From Cafeteria roenbergensis (Eukaryota > Sar > Bigyra > Bicosoecida > Cafeteriaceae), in contig VLTN01000019.1 in the NCBI GenBank assembly GCA_008330645.1, positions 124,001 to 188,000 on the forward strand: a stretch of DNA of 64,000 bases. Direction: 5' to 3'. The translations under genes were made by a program, and so were the position numbers. Positions 1 to 64,000 of the stretch are shown here, one piece after another. The notes beneath the pieces were generated by a model. The model was not told where the DNA came from and did not search any database. It saw only the letters and a list, made by a program, of their open reading frames with translations. Within the stretch, counting starts at the first letter, position 1. Every line of letters begins with the position of its first letter.

Positions 1-168
1 GCGGGCACGGAGCGTCGAGATCGTGCCGCTCGGAGGACGGCGTGCAAGACGTGGCTTTGCAGCGCTGCAAACGGCGGCGCAACCGAGCGTGGCTTGCCAG
101 CTTGGTTGGTGGTCGGCCAAGGGTGCCGACTCGACGCACGGCAGGCCAGTTCGCCGCTTCGCAGACAC

Positions 169-7197: not shown

Positions 7198-7459
7198 GTG
7201 TCTGCTGACGCGCAATGGCTTGCATTGCGCTCGCAGCATGCATGTGGGGGAAACAGATCGGTTCAGTCCCATGGCCCGCTGGCCCAGCTGAGCGTGCTTT
7301 CTGAAACAAAACGCCCTCGCACTCCCACCCCGCTCCCAGTTCCCAGCAAGCAAGCGCCCAGCTATACCTCTGCGCGGCCCCAACACCCAGCAGTCCACCG
7401 CCTTGCTGTGCGTTGTCGCGAGGAGAGTCCCGGACCAGACGGAAGGCGCGCTCGCGAGC

Positions 7460-8023: not shown

Positions 8024-8207
8024 CTCCGTGCTCCTCGAGAGTGCCACAGCAGCGCGATGGATCCGCGCTGCCAGGCGGCAGCACTCGCGGCAGAGCCGGC
8101 GGGTTTTTGCTGTTTGCCGGCCGAGAACTTGGCGTTGCCGGCCGACGGCCACCCGCCCTCGCTGAGGCGCGCGAGGCCCGCTGCACGAAACGGCGAGCCT
8201 CCCCGCT
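8024..8207. promoter_or_regulatory. Divergent intergenic region, presumed bidirectional promoter
   Basis: Only 184 bp separate the start codons of the small membrane-protein gene (minus) and the polycystin-like gene (plus), so both promoters must lie here or overlap the genes. I see no TATA box or other recognisable element. The call rests on gene orientation alone. Confidence 0.35.
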
Positions 8208-26742: not shown

Positions 26743-26998
26743 CCCGGGCTGCTCGTTGCTCGCCAGCGTGTGCGTGCACGCGACAGCGTTTGCCAAGGCA
26801 GCTCGCTGCACTGGAGCATAATTGCTGGCCGACAGGAGGCGCAGGATGGAGGCACTCTGGCACGAGAACCAAGTCAGAGGCGCGCACGCACCACCCCGGC
26901 AACAGCACTGCAGGCTGCTCGGGCGCTACAGCGGGGCAAAAACACAGGGAATGGGGCTCGCGCGGTGTCACACGCACGAGAAAAACCACCGCACGCGC

Positions 26999-44358: not shown

Positions 44359-47300
44359 CTAAGCCCACGACAAAGGCCTGCCAGAGGCAGCATCCTTGTG
44401 AAGGTGCGCAAGAGGCGAAACAAACTCCTGCTTAGGTGCTTCCGCGCTGGAAGGGCGGCGCACTGTCGATCGCTGGACGCCTTTGGCGCCCTTGGTCGGC
44501 ACGGCCACGATGATGGCAGCCCGTGTGAGAGCGCCGAAGGCAACGACCTCCAGCGCCAGCACCGCGCCCGCCAGCCCTATCACCGCAGGCACAGCCGCCG
44601 CCTGCAACAGCCCCGTCACGATGGCCGCCGCACCCAGAAGCAAGCCAGCACACCCCCCGAGCCGGTGACATGCCAGCCAGCTAGGCCGCCATTGGGAGTC
44701 CTTCGCCGGGCGCGCCATCCCCAGCACCGCCAGCCCGCTCCCCAGAAGCACCACCACAAGCCCGCCCGCCTTGTGAAGGCTCCCGAAGTGGCTCCCGCCC
44801 GACTGCGCGACGAGTGCGATGGCCGTTCCAGCCCCGGCCAGCGACGCCAGAGTGCCCGCAGTCTGCAGCATCCAGTGGAAGCGGAACCAGCACGCCCCTG
44901 GCCCCGCGGTCGGCGGCACGCCCCTCGCGAATCGCGCGACCAGAGCCCCGACCGGAAGCAGCACGCCCCACGACAGGAACATCAGTGAGCCGTGAACCAG
45001 CACAAGCACGTTCACGGGGGCGAGCGCCACCTTGCCCGTGCCCAGGTTGACGACTCGCTCGCCCCGGTTGGCGCCGTGGTACTGCATTGACTCGCGCCGG
45101 TCCGCCTCGGACGGCCCGCCGCCCACAGCGTACAGCACGCGGACGTCGCGCAGCGGCTCGATCACCACGTCCAGCGAGTCGCTCGTCTCGAGACGCCGCT
45201 CCACGTCCGCCCGCCACACCAGCCCGCCGCTCGCCTCTGACGACGCGCGCCGCCGCCCCACCGCCGACAACGACCGCCGGCTCGGCGGTGTCCCCTGCGC
45301 CAACACCTGCCGCATGCGGATCAGGTCCAGGTTCTGCGCCCCGTGGGGCACAACCCCCTCCAGCGTCGTGTTGCGCAGGTCGGCCTCCAGCACGCGTCCG
45401 CTCGCGCTGGGCGCACGGGGCAGCATCAACAGCGCCCAGACGTCGCTCATGCCAGCGCTGGCATCGCCCCGGCGAATGCCCACCGACGCCCACGAGTCGA
45501 CGGCCCACTCGAACTGCGCACGCCACACCCCTGCAGGGCGGCCGTCCACGCCCGCCGCCAGGATGCTCCACCGCATCACAACGCCCTCGGCCCGACTCGG
45601 GCCCAGCACGGCCTCGTGGTCAAACGAAGACGGGTCGAACAGCGCATTTGCCTCACGCACAGCCTCGGCAAGCCCCTCCACGCTGTCCGCAAGCACGACG
45701 CCCACACCCGCACTGCCGTCCACAGCAGCGCCCACGCCCCCGCCGGTCCGAAGCACGCTGGAGGGGTCGGAGACCTGGCGCTGCAGGTCGAGCGCAGCTT
45801 CGCCGGCGGTCGGCGTTGCGCCCTCGCCTGGGCCGGGCCGGCTGTCGGGAGGCAGCAGCACAAACGACACGCGCACGGAGCCCGCGACCACGGTGACGTT
45901 CACAAGGCGGCTGGGCCTCACGCGCAACGCGGCCGACACCTGCGAGCGGAATTCGTCGCGGAACCCGCCCGGCCTACCGTCCAGCTGCAAGTCCTCGATC
46001 GACAGCGCGAGTTGCAACGTCACGTGAGCCGCCTGGCGACCGAACGGCGACGGCGACGGCGACGGCGAAGGCGAAGGCGATGGCGAGCCCGACGGGGTCG
46101 AGGATGCTGCTGCCGTCGCTGCCGCGGAGCTGCTCGCCGTCGCGCTGGCGGACGGCGGCACAGTCGCAGTCGTGGTGGCCGTCACCGACGACGATGCCGA
46201 CGACGAAGCACTGGCCGTCCCCGTCGGAGCAGGGCTCGCCGCCGCCGACGGCGACCCGCTCGGGCTCGCCGAGGGCGATGACGTCACACTCGCAGTCGGG
46301 CTTGAGCTCGCCGTGGGGCTGGCCGAGGGCGACACGCTGGGCGACCCACTTGGGCTGGACGTGGCCGACGGCGAGCTCGTGGCCGAGGCCGAAGACGAGG
46401 CCGAGCCCGACGCTGTGGGGGTCACTGAGCTGCTGGAGGACGACGACGGCGACCCGCTCGGGGTCGGGGTAGCGGAGCTGTTCACGCTGGGCGTGGCGGA
46501 CGCGGTCGGCGATTGCGACGGGGTGGCGGACACCGAAGCCGTGCTCGAGGGCGACTGCGACGGTGACGCGGTGGCCGAGGCCGACGCGCTGCCGGACGGC
46601 GATGCGCTGGGCGAGGCGCTCTGCGACGGAGACGGCGAGGCGGTGCCCGTTGCGCTCGAGGAGGGCGAGGCAGACACGGACGGCGTCCCCGTCACGCTCG
46701 CGCTCGGCGTGTGCGAAGGGCTGCTCGTCGCGCTGGCGGTTGCTGTTGGGCTGCCGGACGCCGACACGGACGGCGAGGGCGTGCCCGTCGGCGTGGGCGT
46801 ACCCGTGCTGGACGCAGACGGGGTAGACGGCGGCGTGGGCGTCGGCTCTGGAGATGCAGCCGCCTCGCTCACAACCACGGTCACCTCGTGCCAAGACGCC
46901 GTGCGGCTCGTCACCACTGTCGCCCAGAACGATACGTCACCGAACCCCGCGAACGCTGGCGCAGCCCAATTGAACTCCGCCGACGTCTTGTCGGCGTTCC
47001 CTGTGTGCGTCATCTGGTCGTGGGCGCATGAGCTGGAGGCCTTGGAGTTGGTCTTGGGCGTCAGCGTCCCGGTGGACCCGGCAAACGCAGTGCTGGGCGA
47101 GCGGGCGGCGCCCGAGCTCGCGTCCGCCGTGAAGCCGCGGAACGTGCCCCCAGCGAGGCGGACCACGTAGGACTGCCCCGCCGTGTAGGACGTCACTGTC
47201 GCCCCGGCGGTGGTCCTGAGCTCCAGCGTGAAGGTGCCGGCGCCGGAGTTGCTGGTCCCGTGTCCGGGCTCATCCATACAGCTTGAGAGCCCTGCGGAAG

Positions 47301-47510
47301 GAAGGGCCAGCAGCGACGGCAGCGCCGTGGGTACCTTTTAGATTTGCTGCCGTTCATGCAGAGACTACGGAGCCCAGGAGCTCGCGCTTTGGTCGCTCGA
47401 GCCGGAGCAAGGCAAATGAGTGTTCGTTCTGGTCAATCTGGGCCGCGCTCACCGTCGCTGTAGCCATTGCATGCTCGCAAGGCCAATGACAGAGCGAGCA
47501 TGCGCACCAT
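44359..47510 (-). CDS. FRRS1-like ferric reductase, copy 1 (Reeler-DOMON-cytochrome b561)
   Basis: Model: exon 1 47510-47453, exon 2 47291-44359, 996 residues. Exon 1 gives the signal sequence MVRMLALSLALRACNGYSDG. Domains: Reeler at about 21-155, starting SSCMDEPGHG; Ser/Thr/Pro/Ala stalk at about 158-430; an SEA-like alpha/beta module at about 435-560 (VTLQLALSIEDLQLDG, LVNVTVVAGSVRVSFVLL); DOMON at about 588-770 (VMRWSILAAGVDG, SWASVGIRRGD, YHGANRGERVVNLG); cytochrome b561 at about 777-940 with haem-ligand His in LVLVHGSLMF, RFHWMLQTAG, SLHKAGG and ACHRLGG. This is the architecture of ferric-chelate reductase 1/SDR2, which passes electrons across a membrane to Fe(III). The C-terminal tail (TRAAIIVAVPTKGAKGVQ onwards) differs completely from that of copy 2. 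Confidence 0.88.
44536..47299. repeat. Near-identical direct duplicate block, copy 1
   Basis: This block matches 47964-50727 at a constant offset of 3,428 bp with no net insertion or deletion. By eye I count about 14 mismatches over 2,764 bp (roughly 99.5% identity). It covers the exon 2 start through the last membrane helix. Identity stops abruptly at both ends. Confidence 0.92.
47292..47452 (-). other. Intron (161 bp) in FRRS1-like copy 1
   Basis: Minus strand: donor GTGAGC after AGCGACG, acceptor CTTCCTTCCGCAG. Phase 1 (G + GG makes Gly). It joins a signal-peptide exon ending GYSDG to LSSCMDEPGHG. Copy 2 has an intron at the same codon and phase. Confidence 0.8.
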
Positions 47511-47798
47511 TGCAGGTTTGCCTCGCCATGAAGTGGCCCGCTTCGCCCTTTCTCGCATGTTGCGCGGGTGACCCTTGGCAACTGTTGCTTGCCTCCGCGT
47601 CACAAGCACCGGCTCGACCGGCTCTGCCGGCTCGATTCGCTTCGGGCGCACCAACAAACAGGCCATGGGAGAGCCGAAACAACGACACAAGCACATCAAA
47701 AGCCTCCATGCTCCGATTCCTGTCCCAAGAATGTCGCAGAGCGTGAGCGTCTGCGGCGGTCGATGGAAGGCTGGGTAGCTGCGCCAACACTCTGACAC

Positions 47799-50700
47799 TC
47801 AAGGCACAACTTTGGGGTCGTCTCGAAGAGGCGATTTCACAACTACCGTCTTCACGTCAATCCTCCCTGAGCGACTTTGGAGAGAGGCATGCCTTTGGCC
47901 TTGCTGGTCTATCGGCGAGGCAGCCCTTGAAGAGCTCGAGCGCCACAGCGCCGAGAGGGCAATGAAGGCAACGACCTCCAGCGCCAGCACCGCGCCCGCC
48001 AGCCCTATCACCGCAGGCACAGCCGCCGCCTGCAACAGCCCCGTCACGATGGCCGCCGCACCTAGAAGCAAGCCAGCACACCCCCCGAACCGGTGACATG
48101 CCAGCCAGCTAGGCCGCCATTGGGAGTCCTTCGCCGGGCGCGCCATCCCCAGCACCGCCAGCCCGCTCCCCAGAAGCACCACCACAAGCCCGCCCGCCTT
48201 GTGAAGGCTCCCGAAGTGGCTCCCGCCCGACTGCGCGACGAGTGCGATGGCCGTTCCAGCCCCGGCCAGCGACGCCAGAGTGCCCGCAGTCTGCAGCATC
48301 CAGTGGAAGCGGAACCAGCACGCCCCTGGCCCCGCGGTCGGCGGCACGCCCCTCGCGAATCGCGCGACCAGAGCCCCGACCGGAAGCAGCACGCCCCACG
48401 ACAGGAACATCAGTGAGCCGTGAACCAGCACGAGCACGTTCACGGGGGCGAGCGCCACCTTGCCCGTGCCCAGGTTGACGACTCGCTCGCCCCGGTTGGC
48501 GCCGTGGTACTGCATTGACTCGCGCCGGTCCGCCTCGGACGGCCCGCCGCCCACAGCGTACAGCACGCGGACGTCGCGCAGCGGCTCGATCACCACGTCC
48601 AGCGAGTCGCTCGTCTCGAGACGCCGCTCCACGTCCGCCCGCCACACCAGCCCGCCGCTCGCCTCTGACGACGCGCGCCGCCGCCCCACGGCCGACAACG
48701 ACCGCCGGCTCGGCGGTGTCCCCTGCGCCAACACCTGCCGCATGCGGATCAGGTCCAGGTTCTGCGCCCCGTGGGGCACAACCCCCTCCAGCGTCGTGTT
48801 GCGCAGGTCGGCCTCCAGCACGCGTCCGCTCGCGCTGGGCGCACGGGGCAGCATCAACAGCGCCCAGACGTCGCTCATGCCAGCGCTGGCATCGCCCCGG
48901 CGAATGCCCACCGACGCCCACGAGTCGACGGCCCACTCGAACTGCGCACGCCACACACCTGCAGGGCGGCCGTCCACGCCCGCCGCCAGGATGCTCCACC
49001 GCATCACAACGCCCTCGGCCCGACTCGGGCCCAGCACGGCCTCGTGGTCAAACGAGGACGGGTCGAACAGCGCATTTGCCTCACGCACGGCCTCGGCAAG
49101 CCCCTCCACGCTGTCCGCAAGCACGACGCCCACACCCGCACTGCCGTCCACAGCAGCGCCCACGCCCCCGCCGGTCCGAAGCACGCTGGAGGGGTCGGAG
49201 ACCTGGCGCTGCAGGTCGAGCGCAGCTTCGCCGGCGGTCGGCGTTGCGCCCTCGCCTGGGCCGGGCCGGCTGTCGGGAGGCAGCAGCACAAACGACACGC
49301 GCACGGAGCCCGCGACCACGGTGACGTTCACAAGGCGGCTGGGCCTCACGCGCAACGCGGCCGACACCTGCGAGCGGAATTCGTCGCGGAACCCGCCCGG
49401 CCTACCGTCCAGCTGCAAGTCCTCGATCGACAGCGCGAGCTGCAACGTCACGTGGGCCGCCTGGCGACCGAACGGCGACGGCGACGGCGACGGCGAAGGC
49501 GAAGGCGATGGCGAGCCCGACGGGGTCGAGGATGCTGCTGCCGTCGCTGCCGCGGAGCTGCTCGCCGTCGCGCTGGCGGACGGCGGCACAGTCGCAGTCG
49601 TGGTGGCCGTCACCGACGACGATGCCGACGACGAAGCACTGGCCGTCCCCGTCGGAGCAGGGCTCGCCGCCGCCGACGGCGACCCGCTCGGGCTCGCCGA
49701 GGGCGATGACGTCACACTCGCAGTCGGGCTTGAGCTCGCCGTGGGGCTGGCCGAGGGCGACACGCTGGGCGACCCACTTGGGCTGGACGTGGCCGACGGC
49801 GAGCTCGTGGCCGAGGCCGAAGACGAGGCCGAGCCCGACGCTGTGGGGGTCACTGAGCTGCTGGAGGACGACGACGGCGACCCGCTCGGGGTCGGGGTAG
49901 CGGAGCTGTTCACGCTGGGCGTGGCGGACGCGGTCGGCGTTTGCGACGGGGTGGCGGACACCGAAGCCGTGCTCGAGGGCGACTGCGACGGTGACGCGGT
50001 GGCCGAGGCCGACGCGCTGCCGGACGGCGATGCGCTGGGCGAGGCGCTCTGCGACGGAGACGGCGAGGCGGTGCCCGTTGCGCTCGAGGAGGGCGAGGCA
50101 GACACGGACGGCGTCCCCGTCACGCTCGCGCTCGGCGTGTGCGAAGGGCTGCTCGTCGCGCTGGCGGTTGCTGTTGGGCTGCCGGACGCCGACACGGACG
50201 GCGAGGGCGTACCCGTCGGCGTGGGCGTACCCGTGCTGGACGCAGACGGGGTAGACGGCGGCGTGGGCGTCGGCTCTGGAGATGCAGCCGCCTCGCCTAC
50301 AACCACGGTCACCTCGTGCCAAGACGCCGTGCGGCTCGTCACCACTGTCGCCCAGAACGATACGTCACCGAACCCCGCGAACGCTGGCGCAGCCCAATTG
50401 AACTCCGCCGACGTCTTGTCGGCATTCCCTGTGTGCGTCATCTGGTCGTGGGCGCATGAGCTGGAGGCCTTGGAGTTGGTCTTGGGCGTCAGCGTCCCGG
50501 TGGACCCGGCAAACGCAGTGCTGGGCGAGCGGGCGGCGCCCGAGCTCGCGTCCGCCGTGAAGCCGCGGAACGTGCCCCCAGCGAGGCGGACCACGTAGGA
50601 CTGCCCCGCCGTGTAGGACGTCACTGTCGCCCCGGCGGTGGTCCTGAGCTCCAGCGTGAAGGTGCCGGCGCCGGAGTTGCTGGTCCCGTGTCCGGGCTCA

Positions 50701-50961
50701 TCCATACAGCTTGAGAGCCCTGCGGAAAGCAAGAGCAACGGCCACGAATCGCACCAGAGCAATAGAGCAATCACTACGGGTGGGGTGAGGTGGTGGGCAG
50801 CGAGCTATTCGCCGGCAGCCCCGTGACGCATGGCTGCACGGGCACGCGCCCGGAATCGCAACTGAACGCGGCGCACCTGTGCTGTACCCGCTTGCCCGCA
50901 GGACCAAACCGACCGCGAGCACTGCCACAGCTGTTTGCACGACCCCGAAACCTGCAGGCAT
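47799..50961 (-). CDS. FRRS1-like ferric reductase, copy 2 (Reeler-DOMON-cytochrome b561)
   Basis: Model: exon 1 50961-50877, exon 2 50719-47799, 1,001 residues. Exon 1 encodes a signal peptide (MPAGFGVVQTAVAVLAVGLV then LRASGYST) that aligns only loosely with copy 1 exon 1 (both end GYS-D/T-G). The remaining domains are as in copy 1, with amino-acid differences such as SQT for SQS in the stalk, VVGEAA for VVSEAA and HRFGG for HRLGG. The tail after the last helix (ALWRSSSSRAASPIDQQGQR onwards) is unrelated to that of copy 1. A simpler start at 50774 (MIALLLWCDSWPLLLL) also looks hydrophobic. I prefer the spliced model because exon position, phase and terminal residues match copy 1. The start is 188 bp from the divergent Dispatched-like gene. 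Confidence 0.87.
47964..50727. repeat. Near-identical direct duplicate block, copy 2
   Basis: Partner of 44536-47299; see that entry. The boundaries fall just inside the last membrane helix on one side and just past the exon 2 splice acceptor on the other. Confidence 0.92.
50720..50876 (-). other. Intron (157 bp) in FRRS1-like copy 2
   Basis: Minus strand: donor GTGCGC after AGCACAG, acceptor GCTTTCCGCAG. Phase 1, at the same codon as the copy 1 intron. Intron sequences of the two copies are otherwise unlike each other, while exon 2 is almost identical. Confidence 0.72.
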
Positions 50962-51149
50962 CCCCCACCGCGCTCGCAAAGTGCCGCTGGGTCGAGAGGG
51001 GCACGATTCTGAGTCGCAGTAATTGAGGGCTGTGCTGTTTTTCCACTCTCGAGCAATCGTCAGTTGCTCTGCCACACCACCGGCTTTCCAGGACAGCCGC
51101 TCCGCGCAAGCAGGCCGTGCACCCGGGCCTGGTGTCGCCCCCCAGCACC
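50962..51149. promoter_or_regulatory. Divergent intergenic region between FRRS1-like copy 2 and Dispatched-like genes
   Basis: These 188 bp lie between the two start codons under the spliced model. It should contain both core promoters. No motif is recognised. Confidence 0.3.
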
Positions 51150-54100
51150 ATGCAATCCCATGGCGGGGCAAGTGGGGCATATGCCGCCTTTTGCGGGCTG
51201 TATGCCCGGCCGCTTGCGTATTGCCCCGCAATTTCCTTGTGTGTGCTCTTTCTGGCGGCCATCGCTCCCGTCATCCCAGTGGTCTGGCCCACGCTGAGGG
51301 TCCCGGAGCTCGACTTGAACGTCTTGGACATGTCTGTTGACGGCCATCCGGCCACGCTGGCCCGCAACATCGCCGTCAGCCTCGACACGGAAATCGACGA
51401 GCCAGCAGCAGCGCGAGGCCGAGCTCTTCGGGCGGTCCTTGCCACTGGCGGGGCCACCCCGGCGGCATGGGGGCGCGAGCTAGTGTCGGGGCCAGCCCCG
51501 GCTCCGCAGACGGTAGGCCAAGGCTGGATTGACGTGGTGTACTTCCGGCAGGACGAGGGCAACATTCTCGAGCCTGCCGCGCTGGCCGAGGCCCACCGCC
51601 TCGAGCTGGCCCTGCGAGACGACCCCGCCTTCACGAGACTGTGCCAAAAAGCCACGGAAGACGAGATTCAGGCCCTGGACGCCTCAATGTGCCGCCTTCC
51701 GGACTCGGCCATGAACTTCTTCTTCCCCACGGTGCGCGGCGAGGGGACGGAGGAGGAGACGCTCATCACCAACGGCCGCGGAGCGGCGCGTGCGGTGCAG
51801 GACACTGCAAAAGCGTTGCTGCTCTCGAAGCAAGAGGGATACTTTGACCGGTTCGCGAGCGCGTCGGACGCAACTGTCAAGTCGGTGCTCCTCGGAAGCC
51901 GCCACTTCTTTGGCGGACCCTTGCCCGGCTACTCCAGCACTGGGGACCGGCGCGCCGAGCAGCAGGCCAAGTACCAGGCCTTTACGTCGACGCTGCTCCG
52001 CATGTCGCGGGAAACGCAGACGAGCGCAGTGCGCTTCGTGTTCGTTGGCGACGGAGCGACCGTGATGACGCAGATCTTCGAGGAGCTGGCTGCCTCTGTC
52101 ATCTACGCCGTTGCTGCTGTGGGCTTCATTCTGGGGTACGTGTGGCTGCAGACTGGCAGCTTGTGGCTGGCGTGCGCGTCAGCGGCGCAGATTCTCCTCA
52201 CGTTCCCCGTGACGTACTTGCTGTACACCACCGTGATGGGCTACGAGCGAATCGGCATCATGAACCTCATGTCGCTGTGGGCCATCGCCGGCATTGGCGT
52301 GGATGACGTGTTCCTGCTGACCGAGATGTTCAAGCACTCGCGGAAGGAGTCGCGCGCGTCGGAGACGATGCCTGACGAGTCCTCGCGGCTCCTGGCAGAC
52401 GTGGCCGACAACCGTGTCCGGGTGTGGGGCAGCGCGGGCCGTCCGACGCCCCTCACCCCAGTGGGCTGCGGGTTTGCTTGCGTCGCGAGCGTTGCGGGCT
52501 GCTGCGGCAGGCGCTGCGGTCGCTGCTTTGTCGACAACATGGACTCCCCAAGCATGCAGCGGGCCACCCGCCAGGCCCACGACCGGCACGCGGCGCTGAC
52601 GTCTGCGCTGGCCGAGGGGTCTGCGGCGATGCTGGTGACCAGCCTGACAACCGCGGCGTCATTCTATGCCAACGCCATCAGTCGCATTCCTGCGGTCCGG
52701 GGCTTCGGTCTGTGGACGGGCACGCTCGTTGTGGCCAACTACGTGCTTGTCCTCACGTTTTTCGCGTCCGCCTTGTCCTTCTACGAGGCCAACTTCCGGC
52801 TGTGCCTGCCGCGATGGGCTGCGAGGTGCGGCTGCGGAGCCTGCGTGTCTTCTTCAGGCGGGTGCCGCAGACCGGACTGGTGTTGTGAGTCGCGGCATGT
52901 ATCGCCTTCAGCGTCCAGTGTGCCGGATCGGCAGCAGGCCTTCCTCGGCACGACGACGCCGAGGCTTGCGAAGACCGAAGCAAGCGGCTCCGTGCCAGCT
53001 CCCTGGGCCAGAGGCAGCGGCGGCAGCCCGCTGGCCAGCGGGCTCGAGCTGTCGGCTGCTGTGAGTCCGGGACCTCTTGACCTTGATGATCACAGTGGTC
53101 CTCCGCCGAGCAGGGCTGAGGCGCGCGACCGAAGGATGCGAACAGGCTACGGTACCGACGCGATGGCGACGGCCGCCGACTCAGTCGGGACAGACTGGGC
53201 CACCTCGCGGCCAGCACCGACTGATTCAGCTGGCCGACCCGCTTTCAAGGCCGGGTCGCACGGGTGGGAGGCGTCGCGCGCGGGCTGGCACTCGCCCACG
53301 TGCCAGGGCTGCTTCCGGGCGATCTTCGCGCTGCGGTTCGTCATCGCGGCTCTGTTTGTGGCCCTGCTGGCGGCAGGCGGCTACTATGCCTCCCAGATTC
53401 AGCCGGCTCAGAACCCGCCTCTGCTCCTTGTGGCGGACACGAATCTGGAGACCATCCGGCGCTTGCTCTCAGACTACATTGTGGACTGCACCTCCTGCCG
53501 GCTCGAGAGCTCAGGCTCTTCCGGTGGCGCGTGGGAGATGCCTGCCGACAACAGCGGTTCCGGGGACGGCGAAGGCTGCTCCGTGTTTGGGTGTGACGCA
53601 GGGGAGGCACGGGTGCCGGGCAGCGGGGGGTCCATCCCCGTTGCAGCCCTGACCCCGACGCCGTCAACTTCGTCTCTGCCGCCGACGGCCAGCCCCGCCG
53701 CGTCAGTGTCCCCCTCCTCGCTTCCCAGCGTCAGCGCGTCTCCGTCCACGTCGCCTTCGCAACGAGCTGCTGCCGCGTCCCCTTCTGTGTCGCCGGCTGC
53801 GCTGCTGCCCCCGGGAGCCATAGCTTCCGCGCCCAGGCCCGTGGCGCTTTCGCCCCAGCTTGTCCGCAACGACTGGTACCCTCCATCGGCAGCTGGAGCC
53901 GGAGTCGCCGACTACAACCTGCAGTCCCGCGCGCTCGACGACTACACGGCAGCGGCGCTGCTGACGGCCGCGAGTGAGCCCATCACGCCGGTGTCGCTGG
54001 CCCAGGCCAAGGCTTGGGCTCGCATCAACACGTCGCCAGCCCCGTACCCGTTCCTGCAGCACGAGCTCAGCCTCCCGCAGCAGCTCCCGGGCGGACGCTT

Positions 54101-56675
54101 CAAGTTTCGCGTGCGGGCGGAGGGCCCAGGCGGGCCAGGGCCATTTTCGCCCGAGTCGGCCGAACTGGTGATGCCAGGCAACATCGGCCCGCCTGGAATT
54201 TCGCCCTCCCCCAGTGCGTCTCCTGCGCCTAGCGATGCCCCCGACAGCGGCGGGGGTGGCGACCCCTTCAGCCCGCGCGTGGAGCCGTCAGCATCCAGCT
54301 CGTTTGTGCCGTCTCCGTCTGCTTCGTCCTCCTTCGTTCCTCCAGCGTCTCCCAGCGTGACCCCTTCTCCGACGGCGACGCCAGTCAGTCCCACTCCGCA
54401 GCCTTCGCAGTCGGCCGACGCTACACCGTCGCCGAGCCCGAGCCAGTCACCTTCCGTGACGCCCACAGCGTCGCCAACTCCGTCCTCGACACCCACCGGA
54501 ACGCCGACGCCATCCACGACGCCATCTGCCGCGCCCCGCGTTTGCGCGACTGGCTGGTTCAACGAGAACTGCACCACGTACTGCGGAGGCACGGCGAGGG
54601 GTCCCGATGTTCCAGCCGACCCCGCCGCGTTCGGTGTGTGCTCTGCGCGAGGCAGCTGCGACACCTCCAGCACAGGGTGCAGGTGCGACAATGGCGTCGG
54701 CGGGCTGGCTTGCGCTTTCGACTGCCCGAACTGCGGCCCTGGCTCCGAGTGCGACGCCAGCATCGTGTCCCAGCAGGGCGTGCCTCAGCCCCCAGAATGC
54801 AAATGCTTGCCTGGAAACGTGCCGGTCGTGATCCGCCGAAGCGACGGCACTGTCGACCCCACCGACCCGTACGCTGGCTTTGCACTGATCTGCGGCAAGG
54901 CGGCTTCAAGCTCGCGCAGACGTGCTCTTGCAGACACTGGGCGGCCGAGCATCGCCGCTACGTCTCCCGTCGAGGGCGCCCTTGCGCCAGGTGGCAGGGC
55001 GCTGCTGCCGGGAGACGAAGAGCTTTGCCAGGTATCCGTCCCCCCTGGAGGGTCGCCCGCCAGCGTGTGCAGCGGCCAGTCTCGAGGCAGGTGCGCTGCA
55101 GCCTTGGACCTCGCTGCACGCGCAATCGTGAACATTTCTTGCGATTGCTTTCCCGGCTTCCGTGGCGAGGCGTGCGAGCAGCAGTGCCCGAGCCTTCCCC
55201 TTTCCGGCGAGGCCGAGTGCTCGGGGTCGGGCAGCTGTGCGGCAAGCCAGCCGGCTGTTGTCGACCCAGCCACCGGGCTGCTGCTGCTTGACGGCGCCAA
55301 CGCGTCGTGCAGCTGCTACGGGCTGTTCGGCGGGCAGGACTGCAGCACCAAGGCCGCCGACCCGTATCCTCTGTCGGCAGGCTCGTACTCGATGGTCGCG
55401 CTCATCCTTGGAGTCGCAGGCAGCAAACCGAATCCGAGCTTCGTGCCGTCCGAGTCTGCGGGCTCTTCGCTCATCAGCAGCGCTGGTACAGCGGAGGTGG
55501 CTGTCAAGGCTGACGCGGTGCGCGAGACGTCACCGATCCTCGACCCTGCCTTCGACCTCGCCGACCCAGCCGCGCAAGCGTACATGATCCGGCTGTGCGA
55601 GTGGATCGAGGAGCAGCCTGACCTGGTGCTGTACAAGGACCCGCCCGACTGCTGGATGCGCCGATTCCGGGACTGGCTGGCGTCGGCTTCGGGGCCCGCC
55701 GGCGTTGCGTTTCCGGTGACGAACCGCACCCGCTTCCCCGAGCTCCTGGTGACGTGGGCGAGGCAGCACGGCGGGCGGAACTTTTTTGGTGTCTCCACTG
55801 TCTCCAACCAGGTGGTGTGGGCGCGAATGCTGCTGCGGTCGACCATCGACTGGCAGTCCGCCGGCTTTGTCATCTCGCAGCAGGAGTTCCCGAAGTGGCA
55901 GGCTGTGGTCGAGCACGTCAAGGCGACGGCACCCTCGACGCTTGGGTCGAACCCGGTGCAGGCCTCGGACGTCTGGCTCAGGGCGTTTGTTGAGGAGGAG
56001 TTTGTCACGGGGACGGCCCTTGCGTGCGCCATTTCCGTCGGCGCGGCGTTCCTGACCACGCTGTGCTTTGTGCAGTCGATTGCGCTCGCGATGTTCACGG
56101 CAGTGGCGGTCGGGGCCATCCTCGTCACTCTGCTGGCCTTCATTGTGCTGTCGGGCAGCTCCCTGGGCGTCATCGAGGCAATCGCGGTGGTGTGCCTCGT
56201 GGGGCTGTCAATTGATGCTGCCCTGCACTTTGCGCACGGCTACATCCACGCTCCCGTGTGGCTCGTGGAGGCGGCGGACGAGCGGGCCGGCCTGGAGCCT
56301 GGGGAGGAACCCGGGAGCCGGCTGCCGGATTGGGCGGAGGCCGTCGCGAGGCTGGGGCCGCGAGGTGCACGGGCCTCCTTCGCGATGCAGAAAATGGGCT
56401 GGCCCATCGTGTCCAGCGCCATTACGACGGCAGGGGCCTCTGCCTTCCTCTTGCTCACCACTATCGAGATCCTTCGCGTGTTCGGGGTGATCCTGGTCTT
56501 CACCCTGGCTTGCAGCCTCGTCATCACCATCGTCGGCCTCAGCGCCCTGCTCAGCGTCGCTGGCCCAAGGTCCACTCTCTGCGAGGCTTGCGCCCGCGGG
56601 TGCTGCACGTCGAGGCCTGAACAATTGCCAAGCTCTCGCCGGAACCCGATCGATGTGGCATTCCGCTCGCAGTGA
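51150..56675 (+). CDS. Dispatched/Patched-like RND membrane protein with a giant extracellular insert
   Basis: The product is 1,841 residues from ATG 51150; the open frame reaches a GTG at 51117. Helix 1 is at about 29-47. The sterol-sensing-type block spans about 306-551 with GIGVDDVFLL, where Asp385/Asp386 match the proton-relay GxxxDD of Patched/Dispatched. A Cys-rich insert (VGCGFACVASVAGCCGRRCG) interrupts this block and might be an unspliced intron; I could not settle this. Helix 7 is at about 728-750. Residues about 750-1615 are extracellular: two Ser/Thr/Pro stalks, an FN3-like segment (FKFRVRAEGPGGPGPF) and two EGF-like Cys-rich segments (from 54540 and 55020). The second RND half at about 1618-1818 carries GLSIDAALHFAHGY (Asp1689, His1693). 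Family members export or move lipids and lipid-modified ligands using ion gradients. The substrate here is unknown. Confidence 0.87.
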   Translation: MQSHGGASGAYAAFCGLYARPLAYCPAISLCVLFLAAIAPVIPVVWPTLRVPELDLNVLDMSVDGHPATLARNIAVSLDTEIDEPAAARGRALRAVLATGGATPAAWGRELVSGPAPAPQTVGQGWIDVVYFRQDEGNILEPAALAEAHRLELALRDDPAFTRLCQKATEDEIQALDASMCRLPDSAMNFFFPTVRGEGTEEETLITNGRGAARAVQDTAKALLLSKQEGYFDRFASASDATVKSVLLGSRHFFGGPLPGYSSTGDRRAEQQAKYQAFTSTLLRMSRETQTSAVRFVFVGDGATVMTQIFEELAASVIYAVAAVGFILGYVWLQTGSLWLACASAAQILLTFPVTYLLYTTVMGYERIGIMNLMSLWAIAGIGVDDVFLLTEMFKHSRKESRASETMPDESSRLLADVADNRVRVWGSAGRPTPLTPVGCGFACVASVAGCCGRRCGRCFVDNMDSPSMQRATRQAHDRHAALTSALAEGSAAMLVTSLTTAASFYANAISRIPAVRGFGLWTGTLVVANYVLVLTFFASALSFYEANFRLCLPRWAARCGCGACVSSSGGCRRPDWCCESRHVSPSASSVPDRQQAFLGTTTPRLAKTEASGSVPAPWARGSGGSPLASGLELSAAVSPGPLDLDDHSGPPPSRAEARDRRMRTGYGTDAMATAADSVGTDWATSRPAPTDSAGRPAFKAGSHGWEASRAGWHSPTCQGCFRAIFALRFVIAALFVALLAAGGYYASQIQPAQNPPLLLVADTNLETIRRLLSDYIVDCTSCRLESSGSSGGAWEMPADNSGSGDGEGCSVFGCDAGEARVPGSGGSIPVAALTPTPSTSSLPPTASPAASVSPSSLPSVSASPSTSPSQRAAAASPSVSPAALLPPGAIASAPRPVALSPQLVRNDWYPPSAAGAGVADYNLQSRALDDYTAAALLTAASEPITPVSLAQAKAWARINTSPAPYPFLQHELSLPQQLPGGRFKFRVRAEGPGGPGPFSPESAELVMPGNIGPPGISPSPSASPAPSDAPDSGGGGDPFSPRVEPSASSSFVPSPSASSSFVPPASPSVTPSPTATPVSPTPQPSQSADATPSPSPSQSPSVTPTASPTPSSTPTGTPTPSTTPSAAPRVCATGWFNENCTTYCGGTARGPDVPADPAAFGVCSARGSCDTSSTGCRCDNGVGGLACAFDCPNCGPGSECDASIVSQQGVPQPPECKCLPGNVPVVIRRSDGTVDPTDPYAGFALICGKAASSSRRRALADTGRPSIAATSPVEGALAPGGRALLPGDEELCQVSVPPGGSPASVCSGQSRGRCAAALDLAARAIVNISCDCFPGFRGEACEQQCPSLPLSGEAECSGSGSCAASQPAVVDPATGLLLLDGANASCSCYGLFGGQDCSTKAADPYPLSAGSYSMVALILGVAGSKPNPSFVPSESAGSSLISSAGTAEVAVKADAVRETSPILDPAFDLADPAAQAYMIRLCEWIEEQPDLVLYKDPPDCWMRRFRDWLASASGPAGVAFPVTNRTRFPELLVTWARQHGGRNFFGVSTVSNQVVWARMLLRSTIDWQSAGFVISQQEFPKWQAVVEHVKATAPSTLGSNPVQASDVWLRAFVEEEFVTGTALACAISVGAAFLTTLCFVQSIALAMFTAVAVGAILVTLLAFIVLSGSSLGVIEAIAVVCLVGLSIDAALHFAHGYIHAPVWLVEAADERAGLEPGEEPGSRLPDWAEAVARLGPRGARASFAMQKMGWPIVSSAITTAGASAFLLLTTIEILRVFGVILVFTLACSLVITIVGLSALLSVAGPRSTLCEACARGCCTSRPEQLPSSRRNPIDVAFRSQ

Positions 56676-57319
56676 TGGTTGAAAGCCTAGAAATGAAAGT
56701 CGTCGCCATCGGTTCCCTTCGTGGCGACGCACTTGCGTGGCTCTGGCGCTCCAGGCCCGCCTGTGTGCGTAGTCCATCTGGGGCTTGCATTTCATGATTA
56801 AGATTATAGCCCCCACACGCTGCAGGGCAACAAACGCGCGGTCAAGGTCGGAGGCGGCCAGTTTGTGCTCGACTTCAACGTGCAGCTCGCGAGCGTCGCG
56901 ATGGTTCTTGTGCCCGAGCCCTCCAGCTGGCGGGTAGTCGAGGCCAGCGCTGATGCCCAGACTCCCTGAAGCCCACAGCCGCCTTGTGCTGGTGCCGTGC
57001 CCTCCCGGCCACCGCCGGGGCCCGCGGGCTCCCTCGCGACGGGTCGGGACTTCGCGGCCCGAGCGACAACGCGCAGCTCTGGCCTCGGCCAGAAACGGCA
57101 GCTCCGGCCTCCACCCTCCAGCGCCGCCACACACCCACACGGGGCACTCCACCCTCGCACATTCCCGCCTGAGGGTCGTGCCGCGCAGACCCCATCCACC
57201 TGCAAGGGCTCATCCTGCCTGTGGGAGCGCGCCCGGCCCGGTGACGCGCGCACCTAGTCTCTCCCTTTCGTGCGAGGCACGCGCCGAAGGAGCCATTGCG
57301 GAGCTCGGCGAGGAGCGGT
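56676..57319. other. Intergenic region with an orphan coding-like fragment (56802-56969, plus)
   Basis: These 644 bp separate Dispatched-like and FG-GAP genes. A plus-strand frame from 56802 to the TGA at 56967 reads as a protein C-terminus (KRAVKVGGGQFVLDFNVQLA, then SVAMVLVPEPSSWRVVEAS) with GC-ending codons, but has no start. Just upstream is AT-rich sequence and CCCCCACACGCTGCAG, which resembles a 3' splice site. The minus strand is also open here (VGAIILIMKCKPQMDYAHRR), so coding direction is unsure. The rest, about 56970-57319, shows nothing recognisable and probably includes the promoter of the next gene. Confidence 0.35.
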
Positions 57320-60300
57320 ATGCTGCTGCACCAGGCCGTGCCCATGGGGGCGTGTGCGGCCATGGTTGCTGTCGTGCTGGCCTGCGGTGCTGGGGCGGTG
57401 CCCGCGGCCCCGGCGCATGGTGTGCAACGGGCCGTCGCTGAGGCGCTCTCTGCTGCACGCGCTGGAGCTGCCTTTGCCCCCCTCGGCGACATTGATGGGG
57501 ACGGCAACAGCGACTACCTGCTCGGATTTCCCCGCGCTGGGCCTGGGGGCCCTGACGCTGGCCCAGGGGCGGCCTTGGTTGTGCTCACGGGCGGCTTGGG
57601 ACTCGCCGACAACGCCCGAAGCTGGCCGATCAGCCACGCGACCAGCCACACCCTCCGCGAGCGGCTGCCCAGGCCGTCCGGCTTCGGGTCTGCAGTGGCC
57701 GCAGGCTTCCCCGCCGCGCCCCGCAGTGAGCTGACGGTGGCCGTCGGAGCCCCCGAGCTGGCCGTGGCTGGCGCATCGCAGCCATGCGGGGCGGTTTTCG
57801 TGGTGACCATGTCCGTGGTCTCTGGAGCCATTCTGCGGGCGCACGAAGTCAGCGCGCGCACACACGCCGCCGACCTCCCGCGTCGCGCTCGGTCCCCCGG
57901 GGCGCGACTGGGGCACGCCCTCGCCGTCCTTGGCGCCGGGCGGGAAGGCTCGGTCTGGCTGGCAGCGGCGTTCCACCCTGACACGGCACTCGCTCAGCCA
58001 GCGGAGGGCGTCGCCCTCATGCTGCTCGCCCGCGACCGCAGCCTCGCCCGGTCGCTGGAGCTGAGCCCGGCTCCTGGCACGGGGTGTCTCCCGCGAGCGC
58101 CGCCCCGCCAGGGAGGGCGCTCATCGTGGTTGGTGACGAGCATGGCGAGCGTGGGCAAGCTTGCCGACACGAGCGACCCAGCGCAGTCGCGCTTCACCCT
58201 CGCGCTGGGCCTCGCTGGAGCAGGGCCCGACGCGGCGCACGTGCTGCACGCGTCGCTCGACGGCCGCGTGCATTCCACACGCTGGCTGGCCCGCAGCGAG
58301 CTTGGCTCGCGCAGGCCGGGAGCGAGCCCGGATGACCGCATTCGCGGTTTCAACGTCGCGGTCGTCGACCGGCCGCCCGGCAGCGGTGCGGCGGAGCTGG
58401 TGGTGGCCGACTGGCGCCCGGGCCCGGCGCTCGATTGCAGGGGTGGGCGCGACTCGGGAGGGCAGGTGTTCAGGGTTGTGATGGGCGCTGCGGGGACGGG
58501 CGAAGCGCGCGAGGAGTCCGGCGGCGCGAGCATCGAAGCGGGGTGTGCGCTGGAGGCGGCGCCGTGGGGCGCTGACCGCGCTGGCAGCCCCGCTGTGCAC
58601 GCGCAGGCTGTTCGCGGAGTGTGTGAGCTGGCGAGGCTCGAGGAGACCCTTGATCCGCAAGGCTCTTCAGTTCAGCCAGTGGCCCGCAGCCAAGGCCTGG
58701 GCGTCGCGCCATCGGGGTCCGCAGACCAGCCGCACGGGCGCCGGCTGGCTAGCTCGCCGTCGCCGTCGCCGGTGCCTGCGTCGCTCGCCATCGTGGACGG
58801 ACCTGAGGAGAGCGACAGCGGCGACGCCGCCCTCTCGTCAGTACCGGGCTCGTCGGCTTTCGGTACATCCGTGGCATTCGCCGGCGATCTTGACAGCGAC
58901 GGGGTGGACGACTTCCTGGTTGGGGCGCCGAAGCGGAGTTTCAGCTCGCCCACCGTGAGCAACGGGGGCACCGTCTTCATGTGCTACATGGCCTCGGGCG
59001 GAGGCGTGCGGGAGGTGGAGGAGCTGGCATTCGCCGAGGGCGATGCGAGTCTGGGCGGCGGCTCCTTCGGCTCCAGCATCGCGGTTGTGAGCGGCTGGGG
59101 TCTGGAGTCGCCTCTCCTGTTCCTGACGGGCGGGACCGGGTCTTCGGGGGGCGGGCTTGGGCTGGTGTCTGCGCCGACGGCGGCCAGCGCTGCGCTGTCG
59201 TGGCGCGTTGCCCCCGGCTCCGCGGCCTGGCCGGGAGGCTCTGTGTCTGGCAACGTGATGCTGGGCCAGGCCGTTGCCTTCTTGTCGCCGACGTGGCACC
59301 CGAGCGAGGGCGGCGTGGTGGCTGTGGGGGCCCCCAAGCTGGGCTGGGGCAGCGTGTTGGTGTGTCGGCTGGCTGCTGACGGCACCATCAGCGGCGGCGT
59401 GCGGCTGTCGACGGCCACTGAGGGCCTGGAGAGCGTGGTGGACAGCTCCATGGCGTTCGGGGCGGCGATTGCGTCGCAGCACAACCACGGCGTGTTCCTC
59501 CTCATGGTGGGCGCGCCCGACTTCGACCGCCCGGGCCTTTTGAACCAGGATGGAGCGGTGGTGTTGATATCCCTCAACGCCACGACTCTTGGTGTGATCA
59601 CGGCCAGACGGTTCGACACCAGCTTGCCCAAGCTGTCGCCGTTCGGCCAGGATTTGAGCGGGTTCGGCTCATCGGTGGAGTGGTTGGGGCGGTGGGGAAC
59701 GTGGGGCTCGGAGCGCTCCGTGGCGGTGGGAGCGCCGAATACAGACAGAGGATTGCTGTCCTATGACCGAGGTGCGGTGTTCATCTTGATCATGGACTAC
59801 GAAGGGCAGCTCGAGTCCGTGTTCGAGGTTGATGACACGAAGCTGGGCAGCGGGGGATATCTGCCTGTGAACAGCTACGCAGGCATGGGCCTGGCTACCG
59901 GGACGGGCGGCAAGCTTGCGGTTGGAGCCAGTGGGTTGGGCACGAAGGGCGGTCTGGTTGACCTGTCACTGAACCTGGTGGTTCAAGGCACATGGCCGTC
60001 GGCATCGCCGTCGGTGACGAGTAGCCCGACGTCCACAGTGTCGGCCTCGCCCACGGGCACGCCGTCGCCGTCGACCACGGCGTCAGCCACGCAGACGCCC
60101 TCGCCCACGCCCACGGGCACGGCCACGCAGACCATGACCCCGACGGCCAGCGTGACGAGCTCGCCCACGGGCACGCCGTCGCCGTCGACCACGGCGTCAG
60201 CCACGCAGACGCCCTCGCCCACCCCCACGGGCACGGCCACGCAGACCATGACCCCGACGGCCAGCGTGACGAGCTCGCCCACGGGCACGCCGTCGCCGTC

Positions 60301-63300
60301 GACCACGGCGTCAGCCACGCAGACGCCCTCGCCCACGCCCACGGGCACGGCCACGCAGACCATGACCCCGACGGCCAGCGTGACGAGCTCGCCCACGGGC
60401 ACGCCGTCGCCGTCGACCACGGCGTCAGCCACGCAGACGCCCTCGCCCACGCCCACGGGCACGGCCACGCAGACCATGACCCCGACGGCCAGCGTGACGA
60501 GCTCGCCCACGGGCACGCCGTCGCCGTCGACCACGGCGTCAGCCACGCAGACGCCCTCGCCCACGCCCACGGGCACGGCCACGCAGACCATGACCCCGAC
60601 GGCCAGCGTGACGAGCTCGCCCACGGGCACGCCGTCGCCGTCGACCACGGCGTCAGCCACGCAGACGCCCTCGCCCACGCCCACGGGCACGGCCACGCAG
60701 ACCATGACCCCGACGGCCAGCGTGACGAGCTCGCCCACGGGCACGCCGTCGCCGTCGACCACGGCGTCAGCCACGCGGACGCCCTCGCCCACGCCCACGG
60801 GCACGGCCACGCAGACCATGACCCCGACGGCCAGCGTGACGAGCTCGCCCACGGGCACGCCGTCGCCGTCGACCACGGCGTCAGCCACGCGGACGCCCTC
60901 GCCCACGCCCACGGGCACGGCCACGCAGACCATGACCCCGACGGCCAGCGTGACGAGCTCGCCCACGGGCACACCGACCGGCACATCTACCGCTGCGGTG
61001 ACGCCCAGCGCCACGGCATCCGTGGGGTCGTCGTCGTCACCCAGCTCCAGCCAGTTGCCCACGCCCACGGGCACGGCCACGCAGACCATGACCCCGACGT
61101 CCACAGTGTCGGCCTCGCCCACGGGCACGCCGTCGCCGTCGACCACGGCGTCAGCCACGCGGACGCCCTCGCCCACGCCCACGGGCACGGCCACGCAGAC
61201 CATGACCCCGACGGCCAGCGTGACGAGCTCGCCCACGGGCACGCCGTCGCCGTCGACCACGGCGTCAGCCACGCAGACGCCCTCGCCCACGCCCACGGGC
61301 ACGGCCACGCAGACCATGACCCCGACGGCCAGCGTGACGAGCTCGCCCACGGGCACACCGACCGGCACATCTACCGCTGCGGTGACGCCCAGCGCCACGG
61401 CATCCGTGGGGTCGTCGTCGTCACCCAGCTCCAGCCAGTTGCCCACGCCCACGGGCACGGCCACGCAGACCATGACCCCGACGTCCACAGTGTCGGCCTC
61501 GCCCACGGGCACGCCGTCGCCGTCGACCACGGCGTCAGCCACGCGGACGCCCTCGCCCACGCCCACGGGCACGGCCACGCAGACCATGACCCCGACGGCC
61601 AGCGTGACGAGCTCGCCCACGGGCACGCCGTCGCCGTCGACCACGGCGTCAGCCACGCAGACGCCCTCGCCCACGCCCACGGGCACGGCCACGCAGACCA
61701 TGACCCCGACGGCCAGCGTGACGAGCTCGCCCACGGGCACACCGACCGGCACATCTACCGCTGCGGTGACGCCCAGCGCCACGGCATCCGTGGGGTCGTC
61801 GTCGTCACCCAGCTCCAGCCAGTTGCCCACGCCCACGGGCACGGCCACGCAGACCATGACCCCGACGTCCACAGTGTCGGCCTCGCCCACGGGCACGCCG
61901 TCGCCGTCGACCACGGCGTCAGCCACGCGGACGCCCTCGCCCACGCCCACGGGCACGGCCACGCAGACCATGACCCCGACGGCCAGCGTGACGAGCTCGC
62001 CCACGGGCACGCCGTCGCCGTCGACCACGGCGTCAGCCACGCGGACGCCCTCGCCCACGCCCACGGGCACGGCCACGCAGACCATGACCCCGACGGCCAG
62101 CGTGACGAGCTCGCCCACGGGCACGCCGTCGCCGTCGACCACGGCGTCAGCCACGCAGACGCCCTCGCCCACGCCCACGGGCACGGCCACGCAGACCATG
62201 ACCCCGACGGCCAGCGTGACGAGCTCGCCCACGGGCACACCGACCGGCACATCTACCGCTGCGGTGACGCCCAGCGCCACGGCATCCGTGGGGTCGTCGT
62301 CGTCACCCAGCTCCAGCCAGTTGCCCACGCCCACGGGCACGGCCACGCAGACCATGACCCCGACGGCCAGCGTGACGAGCTCGCCCACGGGCACGCCGTC
62401 GCCGTCGACCACGGCGTCAGCCACGCAGACGCCCTCGCCCACGCCCACGGGCACGGCCACGCAGACCATGACCCCGACGGCCAGCGTGACGAGCTCGCCC
62501 ACGGGCACGCCGTCGCCGTCGACCACGGCGTCAGCCACGCGGACGCCCTCGCCCACGCCCACGGGCACGGCCACGCAGACCATGACCCCGACGGCCAGCG
62601 TGACGAGCTCGCCCACGGGCACACCGACCGGCACATCTACCGCTGCGGTGACGCCCAGCGCCACGGCATCCGTGGGGTCGTCGTCGTCACCCAGCTCCAG
62701 CCAGTTGCCCACGCCCACGGGCACGGCCACGCAGACCATGACCCCGACGGCCAGCGTGACGAGCTCGCCCACGGGCACGCCGTCGCCGTCGACCACGGCG
62801 TCAGCCACGCAGACGCCCTCGCCCACGCCCACGGGCACGGCCACGCAGACCATGACCCCGACGGCCAGCGTGACGAGCTCGCCCACGGGCACGCCGTCGC
62901 CGTCGACCACGGCGTCAGCCACGCGGACGCCCTCGCCCACGCCCACGGGCACGGCCACGCAGACCATGACCCCGACGGCCAGCGTGACGAGCTCGCCCAC
63001 GCCCACGGCCACGGCCACGCAGACCATGACCCCGACGGCCAGCGTGACGAGCTCGCCCACGGGCACGCCGACCGGCACTGCCATGCCCACGCCGTCGGTC
63101 ACGCCGACTGCCACTGCGACTCTCTCTCCGGGCGCCTCCCCTTCCGCGTCGTCGTCCCCTTCCCAGTCGGTGACCCCGTCGCCCAGCGCCTCCGCGTCGG
63201 CGCCTCCGCGCATGGAGGGCCCGCTGTTCGACCCCACCTTCGCCCCTGTCGCCGTGGCCGGGCTGGCCACGTCATCCAGTGAGCTTCAGCCGTGCTCCGA

Positions 63301-64000
63301 CTCGTCCGCCGACTTCGCCAGCAGCCTGCTCCCCGTCAGCCCGTCTGTTGCGTCACTGCCCGTGCTGCGACTGACCAGCCCCGCGGAGCTGGTCGAGATC
63401 GGCGTGCGCGCCCTCACGCCCGCATCGGCGCCGCTGGCGCGCTCGCTGGCCTCGCTGTGGTCGGTGCTGGCGCTGATGCGCATCGGCGTGGTCGGCCACG
63501 CGCTGCAGCCGTCTGCGTGGACCGCCGACGGGTCGGCGAGCGGGCCCCTGAGCCTGTCGAAGCTGAACGCATCGGCGGCGCTGCTGCCCGCCGGCGCGCG
63601 ACAGGCCTACGCGGCGCTGCTGGGCGCAGCGCCCGCGATCCCCGCTGCGCCTGCTGTGGCGCCCGGCGCGGCTGCGTCGATGGCGACCGTGGCCGGGCCG
63701 CTCCTGCGCGCGTCTGGCGCGGCGCTTGCCAACGCCACCGGGTCCACGCTTGCGATGGCGCGGCGGCTGTCGTCTTCGAGTGGAGTGGCGGTGTTCGCTC
63801 AGGAGCTGCTGCTGGGGGCGGCGCCGGCGGGGTCGGCAGTGGAGGCTGTTGGTGTGGCGCGGAACGCGGCCGGTCGGGTGGGGTACGGCAGCGTGGCCTT
63901 CCGCGTCGGGACGGGCGCGTCGTCGGCTCTGCGGGTGCGCGCCTCGGTATCGGGGGCGTCAGCGGGCACGGCGCAGCACGGGGACGCGCTGAGCATCAGT
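57320..64000 (+). CDS. FG-GAP (integrin-alpha-like beta-propeller) surface protein with mucin-like repeat stalk, 3' partial
   Basis: I read this frame from ATG 57320 to base 64000 without a stop, at least 2,227 residues; it runs off the window. The start [20 protein letters not shown] plus [12 protein letters not shown] is a good signal peptide (a second ATG lies at 57344). Residues about 45-900 contain FG-GAP-type blades. Two calcium-binding loops are clear: DIDGDGNSD at about 57-65 followed by YLLGFPRAG, and DLDSDGVDD at 523-531 followed by FLVGAPK. Several VAVGAP-type blade ends follow ([28 protein letters not shown]). Residues about 900-1915 are a Thr/Ser/Pro-rich tandem array. After 63200 the sequence becomes an Ala/Ser/Val-rich, possibly folded region with a new N-glycan site. 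Integrin-alpha-like propellers bind ligands outside the cell, so this is probably an adhesion or surface protein. A membrane anchor is not visible in the window. Confidence 0.85.
60047..63060 (+). repeat. Higher-order 114/156-bp tandem array encoding a Thr/Ser/Pro stalk
   Basis: Nineteen 114-bp units (38 residues, containing [12 protein letters not shown] and [20 protein letters not shown]) are punctuated by five 156-bp variants that contain [20 protein letters not shown]. Variants start near 60959, 61343, 61727, 62225 and 62609. Their spacing is 384, 384, 498 and 384 bp, meaning two, two, three and two 114-bp units between them. The first three variants end in TSTVSASP and the last two in TASVTSSP. 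Antisense frames are open throughout, but this reflects composition. Confidence 0.92.

What the first reader, a model, noticed from the sequence alone, without database searches (positions are those of the whole stretch)
44359..50961. Tandem ferric reductases with a gene-converted core and unrelated ends
A 2,764-bp block is about 99.5% identical between copies with zero net indels, even across its Ser/Thr repeat. The signal-peptide exons, introns, last tail residues and flanks are unrelated apart from shared exon position, phase and a GYS-x-G motif. A recent duplication would have copied the flanks; instead this looks like an old duplication whose core is homogenised by gene conversion while targeting ends diverge. 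The two enzymes may have the same activity at different membranes.
Basis: partly seen in the sequence, partly recalled or inferred. Interest (0 to 1): 0.75.

Follow-up and report, generated by a model that had tools for sequence, protein, structure and literature searches.

The report
Tandem reductase genes with homogenised core
Two neighbouring iron-reductase-like genes in a marine flagellate share an almost identical 2.8-kb core but have different first exons, introns, tails and surroundings, best explained by an old duplication whose core was recently overwritten by gene conversion, a known process seen here in a clear form.

Summary
Blocks 44536-47299 and 47964-50727 match over 2,764 bp with 14 mismatches and no gaps. 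Identity stops abruptly, 8 bp inside intron 1 and near the end of the last hydrophobic segment. No third copy was found. The proteins are Reeler / Ser-Thr stalk / b561 reductases (CYBDOM type); Pfam did not call DOMON.

Gene conversion of an older tandem pair is the best explanation. The first exons are diverged homologues: same phase, introns of 161 and 157 bp, best of 300 donor pairs. Core dS is 0.014; 11 of 14 differences are synonymous (p=1.4e-4). Tails and other flanks show no firm homology, so a recent block duplication is not excluded.

The pattern recurs. A dispersed peroxidase-DOMON pair is a mosaic: 250/254 fourfold sites match in one part, 45/139 in another. The adjacent Patched-like gene has a copy elsewhere with equally abrupt ends.

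The 'different membranes' idea is unsupported. Coding-only concerted evolution is known (Drosophila Amy): a new member of a known kind.

The parts
44359..47291 (-). copy 1, exon 2: Reeler domain, Ser/Thr stalk, DOMON-like region, b561 core, tail
47292..47452 (-). copy 1, intron 1 (161 bp, GT-AG, phase 1), no firm similarity to copy 2 intron except the last 8 bp
47453..47510 (-). copy 1, exon 1: signal peptide MVRMLALSLALRACNGYSDG|
44536..47299 (-). copy 1, homogenised block (99.49% to copy 2)
44359..44535 (-). copy 1, private C-terminal tail (58 aa and stop)
47799..50719 (-). copy 2, exon 2
50720..50876 (-). copy 2, intron 1 (157 bp, GT-AG, phase 1)
50877..50961 (-). copy 2, exon 1: signal peptide MPAGFGVVQTAVAVLAVGLVLRASGYSTG|
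47964..50727 (-). copy 2, homogenised block
47799..47963 (-). copy 2, private C-terminal tail (54 aa and stop)
47300..47963 (.). 664-bp spacer between the blocks (copy 2 tail and 3' region, copy 1 promoter region, exon 1 and most of its intron); the only place found in the genome search is its own

Best explanation
An old tandem duplication produced two CYBDOM-type (Reeler / DOMON-like / cytochrome b561) transmembrane reductase genes. Introns, promoters, tails and signal-peptide exons drifted apart, while exon 2 was overwritten recently, and perhaps repeatedly, by ectopic gene conversion between the neighbours. The tract stops where homology had already decayed: at the intron 1 acceptor and near the end of the last membrane helix. 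Since then purifying selection has kept both proteins working. Shown: the block, its edges, open gene models, the synonymous excess and the diverged exon 1. Inferred: that the mechanism is conversion, that it recurs, the splicing, and the ferric reductase activity.
For: Block of 2,764 bp with 14 mismatches and no gap, spread evenly (KS p=0.99). Core dS 0.014, dN 0.0015, 11 of 14 differences synonymous (binomial p=1.4e-4). Exon 1 of the two genes: same phase, introns 161/157 bp, similar LRA..GYSxG| end (peptide shuffle p=0.0002; top of 300 donor pairs with 22/30 against 16 for the next, background 0.00114). Five mismatches in 27 aligned bp of exon 1, plus a codon indel (stretch picked and counted by eye from the alignment), would have p=2.5e-7 at the block's rate. 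Same-genome precedent: the An_peroxidase-DOMON-Cyt-b5-FAD pair (C54/C39) has 250/254 identical fourfold sites over nine 50-codon bins of the peroxidase part and 45/139 over the last twelve bins of the same ORF, the ten bins between being intermediate; introns show only background identity and the signal peptide differs. The Patched-like neighbour has a copy on C37 with abrupt ends.
Against: Only a very short exon shows that the ends are homologous; the tails show no protein similarity (p 0.50-0.72) and the flank DNA no firm similarity. Exon 1 did not raise the Reeler score (54.5 and 54.3 bits with it, 55.1 without). There is no gradient of divergence towards the edges, so repeated conversion is not shown. 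No outgroup or other strain could be compared. Read mapping during polishing may have removed some true differences inside the block.
Confidence: 0.75

Rival explanations
1. A recent duplication of the 2.76-kb block only, with breakpoints 8 bp before the exon and near the end of the coding region; the new copy then used whatever first exon and stop lay beside it.
For: Edges are abrupt, tails show no homology, tail codons have low GC4 as noncoding DNA might (45/73 against 574/680 in the core, p=1.4e-5; 0 of 52 control ORFs drop by 0.20 or more in their last 59 codons).
Against: The new copy would need, by chance, a signal-peptide exon in the right phase, with an intron of nearly the same length and a similar GYSxG end. 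A breakpoint at the splice acceptor is also a coincidence.
Confidence: 0.15
2. Assembly or polishing artefact: misjoined contig, uncollapsed alleles, or reads of one copy laid on the other.
For: Diploid, heterozygous genome assembled from 13-45x PacBio reads and polished by read mapping (PMC6972860 passages). A C72/C104 Patched-family pair is identical but for two gaps over the 2,185 bp compared, which could be an uncollapsed allele.
Against: Alleles would share flanks; here the outer flanks and the 664-bp spacer differ, the spacer was found only at its own place, and the frames, GT-AG sites and stops are intact in both models. Polishing is not expected to turn strongly diverged copies into 99.5% identical ones. 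Not tested with reads.
Confidence: 0.07
3. RNA-mediated copying (retrogene or cDNA-templated conversion).
For: The 5' edge lies within 8 bp of the exon boundary (these 8 bp could match by chance as acceptor consensus), and in the peroxidase pair exon identity ends at splice-like sites.
Against: Intron 1 is kept in both models, the 3' edge lies upstream of the stop codon and no poly(A) tract is visible beside it. In the peroxidase pair a short middle exon carries several differences.
Confidence: 0.03

Closest known systems
[quoted passage not shown] PMC3924832, passages)
   Same: Linked paralogues with homogenised coding sequence and independently evolving flanks.
   Different: Here a direct tandem pair in a stramenopile; the tract also leaves out exon 1 and the C-terminal tail. 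Shown in one strain only.
GOT1 paralogues of Tigriopus californicus (PMC3728101, abstract)
   Same: Mosaic of high- and low-divergence regions attributed to gene conversion.
   Different: That work had population data; here there is one genome.
CYBDOM proteins: human SDR2/FRRS1, Drosophila CG8399 (PMC10691727, abstract and passages)
   Same: Reeler plus b561 core with four histidines at the starts of successive helices; Met and His that could ligate a DOMON haem.
   Different: Pfam does not call the DOMON domain here; a 270-aa Ser/Thr/Pro/Ala-rich stretch lies between; in the b561 part five segments pass a hydropathy cut in copy 1 and four in copy 2.

Membership tests
concerted evolution by ectopic gene conversion | near-identity including synonymous sites within a bounded tract | tested here: met
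   dS 0.014 over the 2,764-bp block, abrupt ends
concerted evolution by ectopic gene conversion | homologous sequence outside the tract that is far more diverged | tested here: met
   met on the 5' side only, by the short exon 1; not detected on the 3' side
concerted evolution by ectopic gene conversion | paralogues within a strain closer than orthologues between strains | not testable with these tools
   no other Cafeteria assembly was available; published strain ANI of 99.05-99.22% for all pairs but one (PMC6972860) makes it testable
concerted evolution by ectopic gene conversion | process seen elsewhere in the same genome | tested here: met
   C54/C39 mosaic pair
simple recent duplication | introns or flanks copied with the gene | tested here: not met
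   no blastn match outside the block; weak, parameter-dependent alignments of intron and flanks
CYBDOM (SDR2/FRRS1-like) reductase | Reeler domain | tested here: met
   PF02014 48.9 and 49 bits, cut-off 21
CYBDOM (SDR2/FRRS1-like) reductase | cytochrome b561 core with four haem-ligand histidines | tested here: met
   PF03188 over cut-off; His at LVHGS, FHWML, SLHKA, CHR in both copies; that these are the ligands is read from their position
CYBDOM (SDR2/FRRS1-like) reductase | DOMON domain | tested here: inconclusive
   no PF03351 match; candidate Met (VMRWS) and His (QYHGA) present, assignment by eye; the fold prediction was too poor to use
CYBDOM (SDR2/FRRS1-like) reductase | ferric reductase activity | not testable with these tools
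   needs an assay

The most novel reading that the evidence does not exclude
Cafeteria runs frequent ectopic gene conversion that homogenises long exons of both tandem and dispersed membrane-protein paralogues, even between contigs, while introns, signal peptides, tails and some internal loops are left out. Genes then become fixed-core, exchangeable-end modules, and converted cores may be GC-enriched by biased repair.
Probability: 0.3. Interest if true: 0.6.

Novelty: new member of a known kind. Interest (0 to 1): 0.4.

Why it matters
It warns that paralogue ages read from core identity in this genome can be wrong, and gives a clear case where the identical tract ends at the apparent limits of old homology. 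Four strains with published assemblies could show directly whether such exon-limited conversion is continuing. For the enzymes, it suggests that the cell keeps one catalytic core under two promoters and tails.

Tried and rejected
Flank homology at DNA level: with permissive gaps, shuffles reached the score in 0 of 300 for the first 180 and the first 400 bp downstream, in 8% for the first 60 bp downstream, and in 3% to 39% for four upstream lengths (100, 300, 400, 664 bp). Stricter tests against other window sequence gave p from 0.0075 to 0.99 over three parameter sets, so no claim is made. The random-pair control allowed overlapping picks, which inflates its p values; the single-sided controls are the better ones.

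Tail homology: not significant. Reeler profile extended by exon 1: no gain. Retrogene: rejected because the intron is kept in both models. Structure prediction of copy 1 from the end of the stalk to the tail: pLDDT 39.5, not used. PDB sequence search with copy 1: five hits, all circumsporozoite proteins matching the low-complexity stalk.

Paralogues of the reductases: the search of the own genome with the protein itself never ran, so other paralogues were sought only by DNA and by three Pfam families.

GC-biased conversion: fourfold GC is higher in the core than in the two tails (574/680 against 45/73, p=1.4e-5), and in the peroxidase pair higher in nine near-identical bins than in the last twelve of 32 bins (225/254 against 87/139, p=3.6e-9; the first bin and the ten intermediate bins were left out). 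But 6 of 52 control ORFs have a higher GC4 than this core, so this is only a lead.

How common such pairs are: on 32 kb of this window, each listed one long match of 95% or more (the same place, window 26998-27495), but both also failed to list the query's own place, so they are weak negatives. Of the 20 stretches, 18 were checked for internal repeats of 400 bp or more (the two DOMON loci were left out); 1 of 18 had one (L023, the tandem-repeat gene next to the window). Window 1-12300 was not searched against the genome.

Papers: 'gene conversion' with 'Cafeteria roenbergensis' gave 3 papers, seen as listing and abstract starts only; none has this subject in its title. This pair was not seen in the listings; that is no proof that it is not in print.

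Full report
What is there. The window is C19:124001-188000 of a 36,303,456-bp, 167-contig genome. Size, contig number and the window's 70.0% GC fit the BVI strain of Cafeteria roenbergensis (C. burkhardae in later work, recalled), published as 36,327,047 bp in 170 contigs with 70.1% GC (PMC6972860, passages). The identification rests on these figures only. Two genes lie head to tail on the minus strand. Each model has a short signal-peptide exon, one intron and one long exon. The blocks 44536-47299 and 47964-50727 are 99.49% identical over 2,764 bp with 14 mismatches and no gap, and no third copy was found.

Proteins. Both carry a Reeler domain (48.9 and 49 bits) and a cytochrome b561 domain (32.3 and 33.5 bits), over Pfam's cut-offs. 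The four histidines expected of a b561 core sit at or just before the starts of successive hydrophobic segments. A Met and a His that could hold a DOMON haem are present, but Pfam does not call DOMON. [quoted passage not shown] Reductase activity here is inferred. The cores differ at three residues (S137G, S256T, L873F); residue 873 lies two residues after the histidine of the CHR motif.

Edges. On the 5' side identity ends 8 bp inside intron 1, next to the acceptor. On the 3' side it ends at codon 914, within the last hydrophobic segment (899-917). Beyond this the tails, 58 and 54 aa, show no protein similarity (p 0.50 local, 0.58-0.72 global). The 664-bp spacer was found only at its own place.

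Are the first exons related? Yes, on short evidence. Both end in LRA, one or two residues, GYSxG and a phase-1 GT donor, with introns of 161 and 157 bp. Peptide shuffles reach the score in 0.02%. Among 300 possible donor pairs in the two upstream regions the chosen one is first, 22/30 against 16 for the next; random donor pairs in the window reach 22 in 0.114%. Against this, exon 1 does not raise the Reeler score, and whole-flank DNA tests are weak.

Age and selection. Core dS is 0.014 and dN 0.0015; 11 of 14 differences are synonymous where 28% would be expected (p=1.4e-4). The differences are spread evenly (KS p=0.99). Both copies have therefore probably been under purifying selection since they were last identical. 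The core's 0.51% divergence is below the 0.78-0.95% between all strain pairs but one (ANI 99.05-99.22%; the closest pair 99.67%; PMC6972860 passages), so the last homogenisation may be younger than most strain splits. That assumes a clock and compares coding sequence with whole genomes.

Same-genome precedents. The only two DOMON matches found in the genome are a dispersed pair, C54 and C39, encoding An_peroxidase, DOMON, Cyt-b5 and FAD_binding_6 domains. Fourfold sites are identical at 250 of 254 in nine 50-codon bins of the peroxidase part and 45 of 139 in the last twelve of 32 bins of the same ORF; the ten bins between are intermediate. Introns between near-identical exons show only background identity in a forced alignment, a short middle exon carries several differences, and the signal peptide differs. 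That is a mosaic expected from gene conversion. The gene beside the reductases, a Patched-like gene at 51117-56675, has a copy on C37. The two compared parts, 51194-52879 (13 mismatches) and 53010-56603 (34 mismatches), have dS 0.025 and 0.026. Its ends are abrupt and a 128-bp internal segment is unrelated in the two copies. As a contrast, a C72/C104 pair of Patched-family matches is identical but for two gaps over the 2,185 bp compared, as expected of alleles or very recent copies; only 2.2 kb of each was read.

Mechanism. Old tandem duplication, drift of everything outside exon 2, and ectopic conversion of exon 2 where homology remained long enough. A recent block duplication stays possible because exon 1 is the only homologous sequence found outside the block. 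Assembly error is unlikely but not tested with reads.

Function of the ends. Both first exons look by eye like cleavable secretory signals, so they would not by themselves send the proteins to different membranes. Only the tails and the differing promoter and UTR regions could separate the two genes. Different regulation is at least as likely as different targeting; neither was tested.

Novelty. Conversion limited to coding sequence with free flanks is known from Drosophila Amy (PMC3924832, passages), and mosaic paralogues from Tigriopus GOT1 (PMC3728101, abstract). The case is a new member of that kind. What lifts it is the clean edge at the splice acceptor and the sign that the process recurs in this genome.

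Noticed in passing
51164-56603 (gene 51117-56675, + strand); G000:C37:137875-143314 (L043): The Patched/sterol-sensing-type gene has a near-identical copy on another contig with abrupt unrelated ends; an internal 128-bp in-frame segment (52880-53007) is unrelated in sequence but exactly equal in length in the two copies.
   Followed up: partly
L019 (C54) about 1985-7030 and L020 (C39) about 2208-7370: Pair of ORFs joining animal haem peroxidase, DOMON, cytochrome b5 and FAD-binding domains, with a mosaic of near-identical and strongly diverged stretches between the two copies.
   Followed up: yes
56957-64000 and C19:195632 onward (L023, L024): Large tandem-repeat gene (FG-GAP match) with a second copy about 14.7 kb downstream on the same contig, 94-95% identical in the two longest aligned pieces with many gaps (97.6% over the first 4.4 kb); the left edge is abrupt.
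   Followed up: partly
26998-27495: About 500 bp 96% identical to C19:213835-214323 on the same contig, beside a repeat array.
   Followed up: partly
G000:C72:7700-9900 and C104:51100-53300 (L046, L047): Patched-family pair identical but for two gaps over the 2,185 bp compared; possibly an uncollapsed allele. C1 and C136 carry another pair with equal scores, not read.
   Followed up: partly
44359-44535 and 47799-47963: The private tails have low GC at fourfold sites (24/40 and 21/33) against 574/680 in the core, which could reflect GC-biased conversion in the core or a noncoding origin of the tails.
   Followed up: partly
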